Positions 4,673 to 9,341 of a DNA stretch of 9,341 nucleotides are shown here, piece after piece. The position numbers and the translations under genes are program-made. The DNA is from Planctomycetota bacterium (lineage in GTDB: Bacteria; Planctomycetota; UBA8108; UBA1146; JAJFFE01), in assembly GCA_020425835.1 (NCBI GenBank), contig JAGQRC010000087.1:1-9341 (forward strand), written 5' to 3'. Numbering within the stretch: position 1 is the stretch's first letter; each line of letters begins with the position of its first letter. The notes beneath the pieces are model-generated. The model searched no databases. It was not told the DNA's origin and saw only the letters and a program-made list of their open reading frames with translations.

Positions 4673-5605
4673 TCAGCGTCGGAGGTCGGGGTCGACCACC
4701 GCGGGGCGCGGGAGGCGGTCGTTCTCGCCGAGGCGTCGCGGATCGCGACCGAGCGCCGTGTCGACCGCCGCGGATGCGGAGCGCTGCAGTCTCGAGAGAA
4801 TCGCGTCGAACATGCCGGTCTTGGAATAATGATCGCGACGACGGCCGTCCTGCCACCGTTTGAACGTTCGATAGGTACCCCGGCCCGTCGAGCCGTGCTC
4901 GGCGATGAGCGCGAGCTGCGCGGAGTTCGAGTAGCTCTGGACGAAGGTGTCGACGAGACCTTCGAACTCCGCTTCCGCCTTTCGCGCGACCGAGCGTAGC
5001 GTGCCCGAGACCTCCTGGCACGCGGCCTCGAGCACCGGGAGCCCCGGACGAAAGCCACCTTCGAGGTCGATCTGGACGAGTCGATCTCCGAACACGATCA
5101 CGTGCTTGATCGACGCGTGCTCGGGGATCAACAGCGCCTCACCCAGTTCCAGAGCGAGCTCGTGTCGTCGAGACATGCGCTCGGAGACGCTGCTCAGCAA
5201 CTCGTGACGTCGGGCGGGCTCGGTCGTCGGCTCCTCGAACACATCGGCGACGGAAGGCCCCGGGCAGTACTCGAGCCACAGCGTGGGAAACCGCGAGAAC
5301 TCCGGTGGGGGAGGATCGTGCGAGAGGACGGGGACATCGAATCCGTGGCGGCGCCAGATCTCGAGACCCAAGCGCTCGGTCTCCCGCCGCGCGGTCGCCG
5401 ACACCCCGCGCTTGCGCTCGAAGAAACGATGGGACAGGCCCTTGATCCACTCGCCCACCAGCCCGCCACGTCGGCGGTAGACCTTGAGCAACCGGTCCAC
5501 TCCACCGACCCGATAGACGTACAGCTGGTTTCCCCCGCCGTGGCTGCCTCCGTCTTGGATCAATGCCACGCGAGTCGGAGTCTCGGAGCCTCCCCCACCG
5601 CTCAC
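4673..5605 (-). CDS. WaaP/Kdo-kinase-like protein with degenerate catalytic loop
   Basis: This encodes 310 residues from GTG 5605-5603. The N-lobe has a Gly-rich start (GGSHGGGNQLYVYRV) and a plausible ATP-binding lysine K41 (DRLLKVYRR), then an ETERLGLEIWRRHGFDVP helix. The C-lobe shows SRRHELAL, the catalytic-loop equivalent HASIKHVIVF (about 163-172) and the metal-binding position as QIDLEGG (D180). The layout is that of small bacterial lipopolysaccharide kinases (WaaP/KdkA), but His replaces the usual catalytic Asp and His168 replaces the usual Asn. It is clearly related to the neighbouring gene (shared RRHE, KHV and D-x-E pattern). I prefer GTG 5605 over the ATG at 5704 because it overlaps the upstream stop as GTGA with GGAGG just before it; the ATG would create a 103-base overlap. 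Function is unproven, and it may be a pseudokinase. Confidence 0.72.
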   Translation of the reverse strand: MSGGGGSETPTRVALIQDGGSHGGGNQLYVYRVGGVDRLLKVYRRRGGLVGEWIKGLSHRFFERKRGVSATARRETERLGLEIWRRHGFDVPVLSHDPPPPEFSRFPTLWLEYCPGPSVADVFEEPTTEPARRHELLSSVSERMSRRHELALELGEALLIPEHASIKHVIVFGDRLVQIDLEGGFRPGLPVLEAACQEVSGTLRSVARKAEAEFEGLVDTFVQSYSNSAQLALIAEHGSTGRGTYRTFKRWQDGRRRDHYSKTGMFDAILSRLQRSASAAVDTALGRDPRRLGENDRLPRPAVVDPDLRR

Positions 5606-6423
5606 CGCACCTCCAGCTTCTCCTGGAGCCGGCGCGCGACGTTGTACTTCGAGGTGGGCTTTCTCGCCCGAGACCGCAGGTTCTGGTCGAGCTGACGACC
5701 CCACCGATGGAGGAGCCGAGGATGGTCGAGGAAGAAGCCGGGTGCCGCGGCGAGGCGATCGCGCGACGGATAGTGCTCGATCGTCTCTTCGAGGAGACGC
5801 TCGCGGAGCTCCTCCGGGATGTTCTTCGAGATGTTCCAGAGGTACTGAACGATCTCGTGGCCGATCTGTTCGTCCACGCGTCGACGCGAGCGCCAGATCA
5901 TCTCGAAGTCGAACCAGAGCAACTCTTCATCGAAGATGAGGACGTGCTTGCCATCCCCGTTCTCGTGGACCAGTCGCGGATCTTGCTCGCGGATCGCGAT
6001 CTCGTGACGGCGACCCCACTCGTCGAGGAAACGACGATAGGCCGAGAACCTCTGCTCCAGATCGATCGTGCTGTCGGCCAAGTACTGGTTCAGCTTCGGC
6101 CCCGTCTTGTACTCGAACAGCATGTACCCGCCCGGGGGACAGTTGGGCGCGACGACCTCGACCTCGGGGTAAATGTCGTAGACGCGGAAGCCGTGCTTGC
6201 GCCAGGTCTCGAGGCACTCTCGCTCGATGCGGAGACGAGTCTTCGGCATGTAGGAGGTCTGCCCCGCGAACACGACGTTCTCGAAGCTCTTGTAGAGGTT
6301 GCCGACCGTGCCGCGACTCCCGTAGTAGACCTTCAGCACCGCCCAGTCATCGCGAAACGGGACCTTGTAGAGGTAGTTCCCGTTCTTGAGGAGAAGGTAG
6401 GGGGACAAGTCGTCGAACTGCAA
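5602..6423 (-). CDS. WaaP/Kdo-kinase-like protein, 5' end disrupted by an assembly artefact
   Basis: About 273 residues are readable from a possible TTG start at 6423-6421; the true start cannot be placed because an Illumina oligonucleotide sits immediately upstream. The N-lobe is short (YLLLKNGNYLYKV), with the ATP lysine in AVLKVYYGSRG and a helix ECLETWRKHGFRVYD. A hinge-like VAPNCPPGGYMLFEYKTGP follows. The C-lobe has EWGRRHEIAI, the loop LVHENGDGKHVLIF and the metal site LWFDFE. As in its neighbour, the canonical catalytic Asp and Asn positions are changed (Asn and His here). The stop overlaps the GTG of the next gene by four bases (GTGA), so the pair is translated together. The reading frame runs further upstream through the adapter as far as 6987, but that extension is artefact plus non-coding shadow. 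Substrate unknown; an envelope sugar or lipid kinase is the family-based guess. Confidence 0.7.
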   Translation of the reverse strand: MQFDDLSPYLLLKNGNYLYKVPFRDDWAVLKVYYGSRGTVGNLYKSFENVVFAGQTSYMPKTRLRIERECLETWRKHGFRVYDIYPEVEVVAPNCPPGGYMLFEYKTGPKLNQYLADSTIDLEQRFSAYRRFLDEWGRRHEIAIREQDPRLVHENGDGKHVLIFDEELLWFDFEMIWRSRRRVDEQIGHEIVQYLWNISKNIPEELRERLLEETIEHYPSRDRLAAAPGFFLDHPRLLHRWGRQLDQNLRSRARKPTSKYNVARRLQEKLEVR

Positions 6424-6425
6424 TG

Positions 6426-6457
6426 TCTCGGTGGTCGCCGTATCATTAAAAAAAAAA
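6426..6457 (-). other. Illumina P5 oligonucleotide with T10 spacer (sequencing/assembly contaminant)
   Basis: Read on the minus strand, 6457-6448 is exactly ten T. Positions 6447-6426 then match the first 22 bases of the Illumina P5 sequence (starting AATGATACGGCGACC and ending CCGAGA). Genomic-looking sequence resumes where P5 would continue TCTACAC. From memory, the surface-grafted P5 oligo is a T10 spacer plus this sequence with a cleavable U directly after the final GA, so the match covers the oligo precisely up to that point. Its translation in the kinase frame gives FFFNDTATTE, a peptide familiar from contaminated database proteins. This segment is synthetic and marks a suspect join. 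Confidence 0.95.
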
Positions 6458-6535
6458 CCGTCAGTGGACCTCGAATGGCATCCGTGGAAAGCGCGGGAGA
6501 CTACCACACTCGCCACGACGTTGCCACGTGCCGGC

Positions 6536-6564
6536 TTGCGGACGCTGTCCCAACCCCGTAGTGT
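6536..6564 (+). promoter_or_regulatory. Possible promoter of tRNA-Sec
   Basis: TTGCGG (6536-6541) and TAGTGT (6559-6564) are separated by 17 bases and lie 17 bases before the first tRNA nucleotide, placing a start site near 6571. Each hexamer matches the sigma-70 consensus at only three positions, so spacing and location are the main support. Confidence 0.3.
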
Positions 6565-6581
6565 ATCCCGGTCTATGCGAT

Positions 6582-6676
6582 GGGGGTGAATGGGTTCCTG
6601 GTGGACCTCCTGGGCTTCAAACCCACGGTGCGGCGCGAACAACGTCGCAGGTCGGTTCGATTCCGATGCACCCCCG
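6582..6676 (+). tRNA. selC: tRNA-Sec (selenocysteine, anticodon TCA)
   Basis: This 95-nt tRNA reads UGA codons as selenocysteine together with SelB. The acceptor GGGGGTG pairs with CACCCCC (6669-6675). The position that would form the eighth acceptor pair of bacterial tRNA-Sec is A6589 opposite G6668. The D stem is 6 bp (GGGTTC 6592-6597 with GGACCT 6603-6608, two wobbles) around a short loop, as expected for tRNA-Sec. The anticodon loop is CTTCAAA, with TCA at 6617-6619. The anticodon stem has TGGG/CCCA plus a C-C mismatch at its outer pair. The long variable arm is a 7-bp stem (TGCGGCG with CGTCGCA). The T arm is GTCGG-TTCGATT-CCGAT, and the discriminator is G6676. CCA is not encoded. The adjacent selD and selA genes support the identity. 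Confidence 0.94.
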
Positions 6677-6934: not shown

Positions 6935-7984
6935 CTAGCGCAGTCGGACCCAGGTGGTGGGGTCTTCCTTTTCGACCCGGCCCACAATGGCGCGAGCGGG
7001 GGTCTGCTCGCGCTCGAGTTGTCGAATGAGGGTGTCGACGTCTTTCTCGGCGACGGCGATCAAGAGTCCTCCCGAGGTTTCGGCGTCGAAGGCGAGAGAG
7101 GCGAGTTCCGGTGGCACGGATGGCTCGATGCCGGCGCGAGGGCCGAGGTAGTGCCGACTTCGCGCGGCGCCGCCGGAGAGGCAACCCTTCATGGCGAGCT
7201 CGCGGCTGCCGAGGGTGAGTGGAAGCGACTCTGCATCGAAGACGAGGGTCACCCGCGACGCACGGGCGACCTCGGAACCGTGGCCGAGGAGTCCGAAGCC
7301 CGTGATGTCGGTGACCGCCGAGACGTCGAGCCCCTCCGTCGCGCGCGCGGCTCCGTCGTTCAGGGTGGCCATGCTCTCGACGGCGAGGCGAACCTGCTCC
7401 TCGTCTTCCTTGCCCTTCTGGATCGAGGTCGTGACCGCGCCCATACCGAGGGGCTTGGTCAGGACGAGGATGTCTCCGGGTCGCGCGTCGCCGTTGGCTC
7501 GGACGTGGTCGGGATGAATGAGCCCGGTGACGGCGAGGCCGTACTTGATCTCCTCGTCCTCCACGGAGTGTCCACCGAGGAGCGCCGCGCCGGCCTTCGC
7601 GATCATCGCGGAGCCCCCGGCGAGGATGTCCCCGAGAATCGACATGTCGAGCTTCCGACGCGGGAAGCCGACGACGTTCATCACCGAGAGCGGCGTGCCA
7701 CCCATCGCGTAGACATCGGAGAGCGCGTTGGCCGCTGCGATCCGACCGTAGTCGTAGGGGTCGTCGACGATCGGTGGGAAGAAGTCGATCGTCTGGACCA
7801 GCGCGCGGTCCGCATCGAGACGAACGACTCCCGCATCATCCAGGTTCTCCGGACCGAGGATGACGTCGTCCCGCGTCGGGATCGTGAGCTTGGAGAGGAC
7901 CTGTCCCAGGTCCTCGGGCGACAGCTTGGAAGCTCAGCCGGCGCAGCTCGCGTATTTCGTCAGTCGGAGTTTCTTCTTGAACAC
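6935..7984 (-). CDS. selD: Selenide, water dikinase (selenophosphate synthetase), selenocysteine-containing
   Basis: SelD makes selenophosphate from selenide and ATP, the selenium donor for SelA. The full product is 349 residues, normal for the family, if TGA 7936-7934 is read as selenocysteine. The N-terminus then reads LRLTKYASCAGUASKLSPEDL, with Sec17 at the place of catalytic Cys17 of E. coli SelD and K20 also conserved. Downstream signatures are NLDDAGVV, TIDFFPPIVDDPYDYGRIAAANALSDVYAMGG, GDILVLTKPLGMGA, TDITGFGLLGHGSE and AETSGGLL. The only in-frame start between an upstream stop (8014-8012) and the TGA is GTG 7984-7982, giving a 25-base overlap with the end of selA and a weak GGTGGGA about 10 bases upstream. 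Cotranscription with selA is expected. Starting instead at the ATG of 7705 would remove the active site and ATP-binding N-terminus. Confidence 0.94.
7885..7936 (-). promoter_or_regulatory. Bacterial SECIS element in selD mRNA
   Basis: This is the selenocysteine-insertion signal bound by SelB, lying inside the coding sequence as in bacteria. Eighteen bases after the UGA, GAGGACCTG (7915-7907) pairs perfectly with CAGGTCCTC (7903-7895) around a GGA loop. A lower stem of 7 bp pairs TGAGCTT, which contains the UGA itself (7936-7930), with AAGCTCA (7891-7885). The two stems are separated by an asymmetric internal loop (14 and 3 nt). A UGA at the stem base and a guanine-containing apical loop at this distance match the general design of the E. 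coli fdhF SECIS. Confidence 0.85.
7934..7936 (-). other. Selenocysteine codon (TGA) of selD
   Basis: This in-frame TGA sits between CAG and ASKLSP at codon 17, the catalytic cysteine position of SelD. Conservation continues on both sides in the same frame, a SECIS-like hairpin follows, and selC and selA are adjacent. Recoding is therefore far more likely than a nonsense mutation. Confidence 0.93.
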
Positions 7985-9341
7985 GATTCGTCGTTCCCAC
8001 CAGAGAGTCCGTCACGACAGGTCACCGCGACCTCGGACAGCCGACGAGCCAACTCGTCGAACTCATCATCGTCGAGCGTTCGTACGTCGAAGAACAGCGC
8101 ATCATCGCGAACGCGCGGCAGGACGGCAGGATCGCCCGTGCGCAGCGCCCGTCCCCAGTCTGCGAGGGCCGTAGGAGGACGGACTTCGACGCCCCAGGTC
8201 GGAAGGTAGCGTGCCGGAAGCGAACCACTTCCCGCCATGGATCGATCGGGAGATGCCTGGACCTCACCGAGACCATCGATGCTCGACAGCCTCGCGGCGA
8301 GTCGCTCCGCTCGGGTGCGCAACTCGGATCCGTCCGTGAGCAGACGGCGAAGCGCCGGGACCTCGCGGATGGCCGCGTCGGTACCTTCGCGGTAGATCCG
8401 CAGCACCGACTCCAAGGCCATGTAGGTCAAACGGCAAGGCCGCACGGCTCGGTAGAGCGGGTGCTTGCGGCAGCGTTCGACTGCGTCCTTCCGCCCGAGG
8501 ATCAACCCCGACTGGGGTCCCCCGAGGAGCTTGTCCCCGGAGAAGCACACGAGATCGGCGCCGGCCCTCAACGAGGTCGACACGTGAGGTTCACCCGGGA
8601 TCCCGTGTCGCTCCAGGTCGATCAGGCAGCCGGAGCCGAGATCGTGAACGACCGGAATGGCATGTTCCCGACCGAGCGCCACGAGCTCGTCGATCGAGAC
8701 CTCTTTGGTGAACCCCTCGATCCGGTAGTTGCTCGTGTGCACCTTCAGGATCAAGCCGGTCTCCTCATCGATCGCCTGCCGATAGTCGCGGAGGTGGGTT
8801 CGATTGGTGGTGCCGACCTCGACCAGCCGCGCGCCACTCTCCTCCATGACGTCGGGGATGCGGTAGGATCCACCGATCTCGACGAGTTCACCCCGGGAGA
8901 TGACGACTCGCTTGCCGCGAGCGAGTGCTCCGAGAATCAGCATGGTCGCGGCGGCGTTGTTGTTCACGACCGTCGCGCGCTCGGCTCCCGTCAGCTCACA
9001 CAGAAGCTCCGCGCAGCCGAGGTCGCGACCTCCACGCTCACCGGACTCCAGATCGAGCTCCACGCGAAGTGGCGCGCCACTCCGCTCGTTCAGGGTCCTG
9101 ACGGCGCGCTCGGGAAGTGGCGCTCGGCCGAGCCCAGTGTGGAGAATGACGCCCGTGCCGTTGATCACTCGGCGGTAGTACGGACGAGCCGCGAGCTCGA
9201 GGGCGTGGCGCAACCGTCGACGGACCGCGTCGAGAGCGAGCTCGGTCTCCTCCAGTTCGCCACGCAAGCCGCGTTCTCGCAGACCGTCCAGGTCGGATCG
9301 CAGATGACGTGTCACGACCGACAGGGAGTGCTCCGCGACCT
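7960..9341 (-). CDS. selA: L-seryl-tRNA(Sec) selenium transferase (5' end beyond window)
   Basis: SelA is the PLP-dependent enzyme that converts Ser-tRNA-Sec to Sec-tRNA-Sec with selenophosphate. The visible part has 459 complete codons and shows the family motifs: RRVINGTGVILHTGLGRAPL, VNNNAAATMLIL, RGELVEIGGSYRIPDVM, EVGTTNRTHLRDYRQAI, KVHTSNYRIEGFTKEV, VHDLGSGCLIDL and FSGDKLLGGPQSG, whose lysine (codon 8532-8530) should carry PLP. The C-terminus contains MAGSGSLPARYLPT and DALFFDVRTLDDDE. The frame is open to the window edge. A GTG at 9315 could be used, but the residues before it (VAEHSLSVVTRHL) resemble the normal SelA N-terminal helix, so the true start is probably outside. The stop lies 25 bases inside selD. 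Confidence 0.95.
   Translation of the reverse strand, partial: VAEHSLSVVTRHLRSDLDGLRERGLRGELEETELALDAVRRRLRHALELAARPYYRRVINGTGVILHTGLGRAPLPERAVRTLNERSGAPLRVELDLESGERGGRDLGCAELLCELTGAERATVVNNNAAATMLILGALARGKRVVISRGELVEIGGSYRIPDVMEESGARLVEVGTTNRTHLRDYRQAIDEETGLILKVHTSNYRIEGFTKEVSIDELVALGREHAIPVVHDLGSGCLIDLERHGIPGEPHVSTSLRAGADLVCFSGDKLLGGPQSGLILGRKDAVERCRKHPLYRAVRPCRLTYMALESVLRIYREGTDAAIREVPALRRLLTDGSELRTRAERLAARLSSIDGLGEVQASPDRSMAGSGSLPARYLPTWGVEVRPPTALADWGRALRTGDPAVLPRVRDDALFFDVRTLDDDEFDELARRLSEVAVTCRDGLSGGNDESCSRRNSD

What the first reader, a model, noticed from the sequence alone, without database searches (positions are those of the whole stretch)
6426..6457. Illumina P5 flow-cell oligonucleotide embedded in the contig
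The minus strand reads exactly T10 followed by the first 22 bases of P5, ending where, as I recall, the grafted oligo has its cleavable U. A 32-base match to a synthetic oligo is not chance. It is a contaminant that survived trimming and was assembled into an otherwise natural sequence.
Basis: partly seen in the sequence, partly recalled or inferred. Interest (0 to 1): 0.75.

Follow-up and report, generated by a model that had tools for sequence, protein, structure and literature searches.

The report
Sequencing-oligo artefact overwriting a gene start
A 32-base stretch in this bacterial contig is the synthetic P5 oligo of the Illumina flow cell, not natural DNA, and similar cases suggest that such stretches silently replace an equal length of real sequence instead of being added to it.

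Summary
Confirmed artefact. Bases 6426-6457 (minus strand) are exactly T10 plus the first 22 bases of Illumina P5. The same 32-mer lies in 72 IMG/VR stretches, 69 of which continue with the next seven P5 bases. It is absent from the 51 loci of relatives examined (40 distinct). It covers the start of a conserved gene and gives the database copy of its protein a false N-terminus.

New detail: the block's last bases, GAGA, encode Glu and begin Thr where relatives have Glu (113 of 119) and Thr (54 of 119), so the oligo probably primed on a native GAGA. In 5 of 5 comparable interior blocks that could be tested, the block replaces its own length of native sequence. Best model, inferred: a surface P5 oligo misprimes inside a cluster; its short strands dominate the base calls, run out after T10, and the read returns to native strands. 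Equal-length replacement could not be tested in the window itself. The end at the cleavable U is suggestive but ambiguous because of the shared GAGA.

The parts
6426..6457 (-). Illumina flow-cell oligo block: T10 (6448-6457) plus P5 bases 1-22 (6426-6447)
   Evidence: exact match, once in the window; composition and homopolymer outlier; same 32-mer in 72 IMG/VR stretches
6426..6429 (-). GAGA, the 3' end of the block, probably identical to the native bases (codon Glu plus first base of Thr): presumed priming microhomology
   Evidence: 113 of 119 relatives have Glu and 54 of 119 Thr at these positions; GAG 126 against GAA 15 in five of the window's genes
5602..6425 (-). native body of the kinase-like gene (kinase is a guess from its look; no Pfam family) whose start the block covers
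   Evidence: 463 homologues at E <= 0.001; no Pfam family
6458..6581 (.). native flank on the T10 side, between the block and tRNA-Sec
   Evidence: tRNA-Sec at 6582-6676; tRNA-Sec is also the neighbour upstream of this gene in L142, in the other orientation

Best explanation
The block is Illumina flow-cell oligo sequence, not genome. Most likely a surface-bound P5 oligo, perhaps the stub left after cleavage at its U, annealed by its 3' end to a native GAGA in a library strand of the same cluster and was extended, giving short strands T10-P5-insert. In the read that runs towards P5 these strands outvote the intact ones over the 32 columns of the block; they then run out of template after the T10, and the signal of the intact strands takes the read back to native sequence. 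One read thus carries native, P5 block, native, in register; it holds no library adapter, escapes trimming, and enters the contig. Shown: exact oligo, recurrence, absence in relatives, the Glu/Thr coincidence here, equal-length replacement in other contigs. Inferred: equal-length replacement here, the mixed cluster, the cleaved stub.
For: Exact match; 72 IMG/VR stretches with the same 32-mer; the 22-mer in 2 of 392 genomes of the phylum of G002, both contaminants. Absent from 51 loci of relatives, 40 distinct. GAGA falls in frame on a conserved Glu and on the first base of Thr. Equal-length replacement: L019 (1 of 1 relative), L029 (6 of 6), L020 (35 of 35 relatives whose matches reach the block on both sides); L016 and L141 align to solved proteins without a gap at the block, and L141 to its DNA relative with no net length change. 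L020's native site matches the last nine bases of full-length P5. P5 3'-phosphate removal and extension of surface P5 at the paired-end turnaround are described in PMC10963267 (passages); mixed clusters and selective cleavage of flow-cell oligos in PMC3163567 (passages).
Against: No reads and no close DNA relative of this locus were available, so replacement here is by analogy. The inferred microhomology is only 4 bases (about 1 in 256 by chance). The block's end at P5 base 22 has no clear second example: L019 is ambiguous, one search gave one hit and it is an adapter with an error, and 8 of the 10 bare blocks show TCTACAC in full. In 18 of 58 L020 relatives with both flanks matched the length difference is not zero, all among matches that stop short of the block. 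L029 carries an index and part of a Nextera primer, which a bare grafted oligo does not explain; L141 has 6 T where 10 are expected; L015 and L028 (adapter, with 14 kb on the T10 side) were not explained.
Confidence: 0.65

Rival explanations
1. Plain contamination: a read that ran into the surface oligo was joined by the assembler to the next native piece, so the 32 bases are inserted between native flanks.
For: 59 of 62 adapter-bearing blocks lie within 300 bases of the end of the held stretch on the T10 side, as read-through predicts. Insertion cannot be excluded for the window itself.
Against: The window's block is bare and interior. The tested interior blocks, 5 of 5, replace their own length. 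Read-through gives no sequence beyond T10 with which to make the join.
Confidence: 0.2
2. Mispriming by a P5 primer during library PCR, or PCR recombination, with T10 added later on the flow cell. A shorter P5 amplification primer or one trimmed by a proofreading polymerase would explain the end of the block without the U.
For: The shared GAGA allows an end at P5 bases 18-22. L029 keeps part of an index primer and then returns to native bases before the primer's own 3' end.
Against: Such a molecule lacks the Read 1 primer site, so its own cluster should give no Read 1 (established knowledge, not tested). It does not explain the return to native sequence in register after T10.
Confidence: 0.13
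3. Genuine genomic sequence of the organism that happens to equal the oligo.
For: Only its interior place in an otherwise coherent contig.
Against: About 1.5e-17 expected hits; not in the 51 loci of relatives; both matches of the 22-mer among 392 genomes are contaminants; it covers a conserved gene's start.
Confidence: 0.01

Closest known systems
Illumina adapter and flow-cell oligo read-through left in assemblies
   Same: Same oligo with its T10 spacer; left in contigs after trimming
   Different: Read-through blocks are mostly at the tip with adapter following (59 of 72); this one is interior, bare and over a gene start
Index swapping on patterned flow cells (PMC5941783, passages)
   Same: Spurious extension of adapter oligos during clustering
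   Different: Swapping uses the proper adapter sites and alters the index; here an internal native site would be primed and insert sequence rewritten
Mixed clusters (PMC3163567, passages)
   Same: Two strand populations in one cluster blend in the base calls
   Different: There two neighbouring library molecules merge; here the second population would be a misprimed shorter copy of the same insert

Membership tests
Illumina P5 flow-cell oligo contamination | Exact P5 sequence with its T10 spacer | tested here: met
   T10 plus 22 bases printed in PMC11123353
Illumina P5 flow-cell oligo contamination | Recurs in unrelated contigs | tested here: met
   72 IMG/VR stretches; 26 phage records match a query that holds the P5 block of L011, and the 8 rows shown match at that block
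Illumina P5 flow-cell oligo contamination | Absent from relatives of the locus | tested here: met
   0 of 51 loci (40 distinct)
Illumina P5 flow-cell oligo contamination | Read support limited to one orientation or mate, or low depth | not testable with these tools
   no reads available
Adapter read-through | Remaining P5 and library adapter follow the block | tested here: not met
   0 of the 7 next P5 bases; no TruSeq, Nextera or P7 string that I looked for
Adapter read-through | Block at the contig tip | tested here: not met
   2884 and 6425 bases on the two sides
In-register overwrite by a misprimed surface oligo (proposed) | Block replaces its own length of native sequence | not testable with these tools
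   no close DNA relative of this locus was found; met in 5 of 5 other blocks that could be tested
In-register overwrite by a misprimed surface oligo (proposed) | 3' end of the oligo matches the native site | tested here: inconclusive
   GAGA inferred from protein conservation; 4 bases only
USER-cleaved P5 stub as primer | Oligo-derived part ends exactly before the U | tested here: inconclusive
   the visible match ends there, but GAGA is probably native too; no clear second example; the U position is recalled

The most novel reading that the evidence does not exclude
Public assemblies hold a little-recognised class of error in which the flow-cell P5 oligo misprimes inside an amplified cluster and silently overwrites about 30 to 46 native bases in exact register. 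Reading frames and contig lengths stay intact, so neither adapter trimming nor frameshift checks reveal it. The window would be a case primed by the stub left after cleavage at the oligo's U, which would date the event to the paired-end turnaround.
Probability: 0.45. Interest if true: 0.5.

Novelty: not a real feature. Interest (0 to 1): 0.3.

Why it matters
The block is not biology, but it misleads: it hides a gene's start and yields a database protein with 31 residues before its conserved core, 29 of them from the intergenic DNA and the oligo. If such blocks overwrite and do not insert, cutting them out would create false deletions; masking would be the safe treatment. Because some stay in frame they can enter protein databases as plausible residues (NDTATTE on one strand, GGRRIIKKK on the other).

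Tried and rejected
Real genomic sequence: rejected on chance and on absence in relatives. Join of distant loci: not favoured, because SelA, SelD, the two kinase-like genes, tRNA-Sec and LysA also lie together in L142; a contig length shared by kinase, LysA and SelA hits (71,223 bases) points the same way but is only a proxy. DNA of the 83% relative (P0003, on a 29,447-base contig): not found in 7 + 377 + 79 + 10 + 294 + 29 + 29 searched genomes (overlapping sets). P5 in E. coli genomes: no match. Phage records: none with the 32-mer alone, yet 26 records match a query that holds the P5 block of L011, so one search was probably a false negative of BLAST's low-complexity filter. Clean relatives of L016, L052 and L011 by 24-base scans: none beyond themselves. 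Frame test: L011, L016, L019, L020 and L141 share an open frame across the block at 150 bases; L029 is open on one side only; L052 and L070 could not be assigned. L015 and L028 were not pursued. Literature (ten searches, of which 30 and 62 failed and are not counted): I saw no title or passage that describes in-register overwriting by a surface oligo. This is weak evidence of absence: only open-licence PMC text was searched, and I saw only passages of six papers.

Full report
What is there. Bases 6426-6457, read on the minus strand, are T10 followed by the first 22 bases of Illumina P5: an exact match, once in the window and in none of 200 shuffles. The A10 run is the window's longest homopolymer, and the block has 37.5% G+C against 65-66% on either side. 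T10 plus the same 22 bases is printed as an immobilised primer in PMC11123353 (one passage).

Where it recurs. The 32-mer is in 72 stretches of IMG/VR contigs; 69 of the 72 continue with all seven bases TCTACAC, the exceptions being L004, L010 and L019. By a string test, 62 of 72 have library adapter after the block and 10 are bare. Of the 62, 59 have the T10 within 300 bases of the end of the held stretch, against 4 of the 10 bare ones (Fisher p about 1e-4; the stretches are not independent). The window's block is bare and interior, with 2884 bases on the T10 side. The P5 22-mer is in 2 of 392 genomes drawn from the phylum of G002: in L140 near a tip with Nextera adapter, in L141 inside an ornithine carbamoyltransferase gene. 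Among 50,697 phage records, 26 match a query holding the P5 block of L011; the 8 rows shown match at that block.

What it covers. The block overlies the beginning of a kinase-like gene (5602-6425, minus; the name is a guess from its look) with 463 homologues at E <= 0.001 (best 120 listed) and no Pfam family. The database protein from this contig (P0002, 304 aa) has 31 residues before the conserved core, of which FFFNDTATT comes from the block. Of 119 listed relatives, 94 start 4 to 8 residues before that core, so the true start most likely lies within the block. None of 51 loci of relatives holds the oligo; 40 of these are distinct. Named hits to LysA, SelA and this protein are often Planctomycetota, with some Myxococcota, Verrucomicrobiota and Acidobacteriota, so the host is probably, not certainly, a planctomycete relative.

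The junction. Read through the junction, the block's last bases give Glu and, with the native CA, Thr. At these positions 113 of 119 listed relatives have Glu and 54 of 119 Thr. At DNA level 30 of 40 distinct loci have a Glu codon there; the exceptions are mostly distant relatives. Five of the window's genes use GAG 126 times and GAA 15 times. So GAGA was probably native, and the oligo's 3' end matched the genome there. A 4-base match has a chance of about 1 in 256: moderate evidence for priming. It also means that the visible end at base 22, just before the recalled U, does not fix where the oligo really ended.

Insertion or overwrite. I scanned IMG/VR for clean relatives of six interior blocks (L011, L016, L019, L020, L029, L052); three had some. 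In L019 (1 of 1 relative) and L029 (6 of 6) the native stretch is exactly as long as the block: 32 bases, and 46 in L029, where part of a Nextera index primer follows P5. In L020, of 59 relatives one lacks a flank match; of the other 58, 40 show no length difference and 18 do (-9 to +3). Among the 35 whose matches reach within 10 and 20 bases of the block, 35 show none. L020's native site matches the last nine bases of full-length P5. Two more interior blocks were tested by protein: L016 against glucose-1-phosphate thymidylyltransferases and L141 against ornithine carbamoyltransferases; the two printed alignments of each have no gap at the block. L141 against its DNA relative L216 has no net length change, though that stretch aligns poorly. 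L011 keeps its frame. L052 and L070 could not be judged; L015 and L028 were not pursued. So 5 of 5 testable interior blocks replace their own length, out of 10 interior blocks known (9 and L141).

How it most likely works. A misprimed strand T10-P5-insert has no Read 1 primer site, so it should be seen only in a cluster that also holds intact strands (reasoning from established chemistry, not tested). In the read towards P5 the misprimed strands supply the calls over the block; after T10 they have no more template and the intact strands supply native bases again. This explains register, T10 boundary, lack of adapter and interior position together. Known pieces: flow-cell oligos are selectively cleaved and mixed clusters occur (PMC3163567, passages); at the paired-end turnaround the P5 3'-phosphate is removed and surface P5 is extended on cluster strands (PMC10963267, passages). 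If the window's primer was the cleaved stub, the event belongs to that step, and blocks with TCTACAC to amplification before cleavage. That last step is inference; a scan for more stub-type ends gave one hit, an adapter with an error.

What speaks against it. No reads and no close DNA for this locus; a short microhomology; only L019 as a possible and ambiguous second stub-type case; and L029 (index primer), L141 (six T), L015 and L028, which do not fit neatly.

Verdict. The interest lies in the likely in-register overwriting, which would make this error hard to see and wrong to repair by excision.

Noticed in passing
6938-7990 (minus): SelD reads on through an in-frame TGA (motif CAGUASK) as a probable selenoprotein; the ORF listing gives only the part after it. 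No Rfam match around the TGA.
   Followed up: partly
6582-6676 (+) and 7960-9339 (minus): tRNA-Sec and SelA lie beside SelD: a selenocysteine gene group; in L142 the same genes lie near LysA and the two kinase-like genes in another arrangement.
   Followed up: partly
4673-5704 and 5602-6425 (minus): Two neighbouring kinase-like genes without a Pfam family; pairs of them recur side by side in several relatives.
   Followed up: no
CP058799.1, about 15471-15506 (L098): A plasmid record labelled complete (Klebsiella pneumoniae) holds P5 with Nextera adapter, at 2 places in the record. Described only.
   Followed up: no
L015 14298-14329, L028 14532-14563: P5 with adapter but 14 kb of sequence on the T10 side and only 152 and 65 bases on the other: not what read-through predicts.
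   Followed up: no
L029 4473-4504 and following: P5 plus index plus part of a Nextera primer, in register, returning to native bases before the primer's own 3' end, as if the primer had been trimmed.
   Followed up: partly
phages collection: 26 phage records match a query with the P5 block although the bare 32-mer search found none: short adapter queries can be lost to the low-complexity filter.
   Followed up: no
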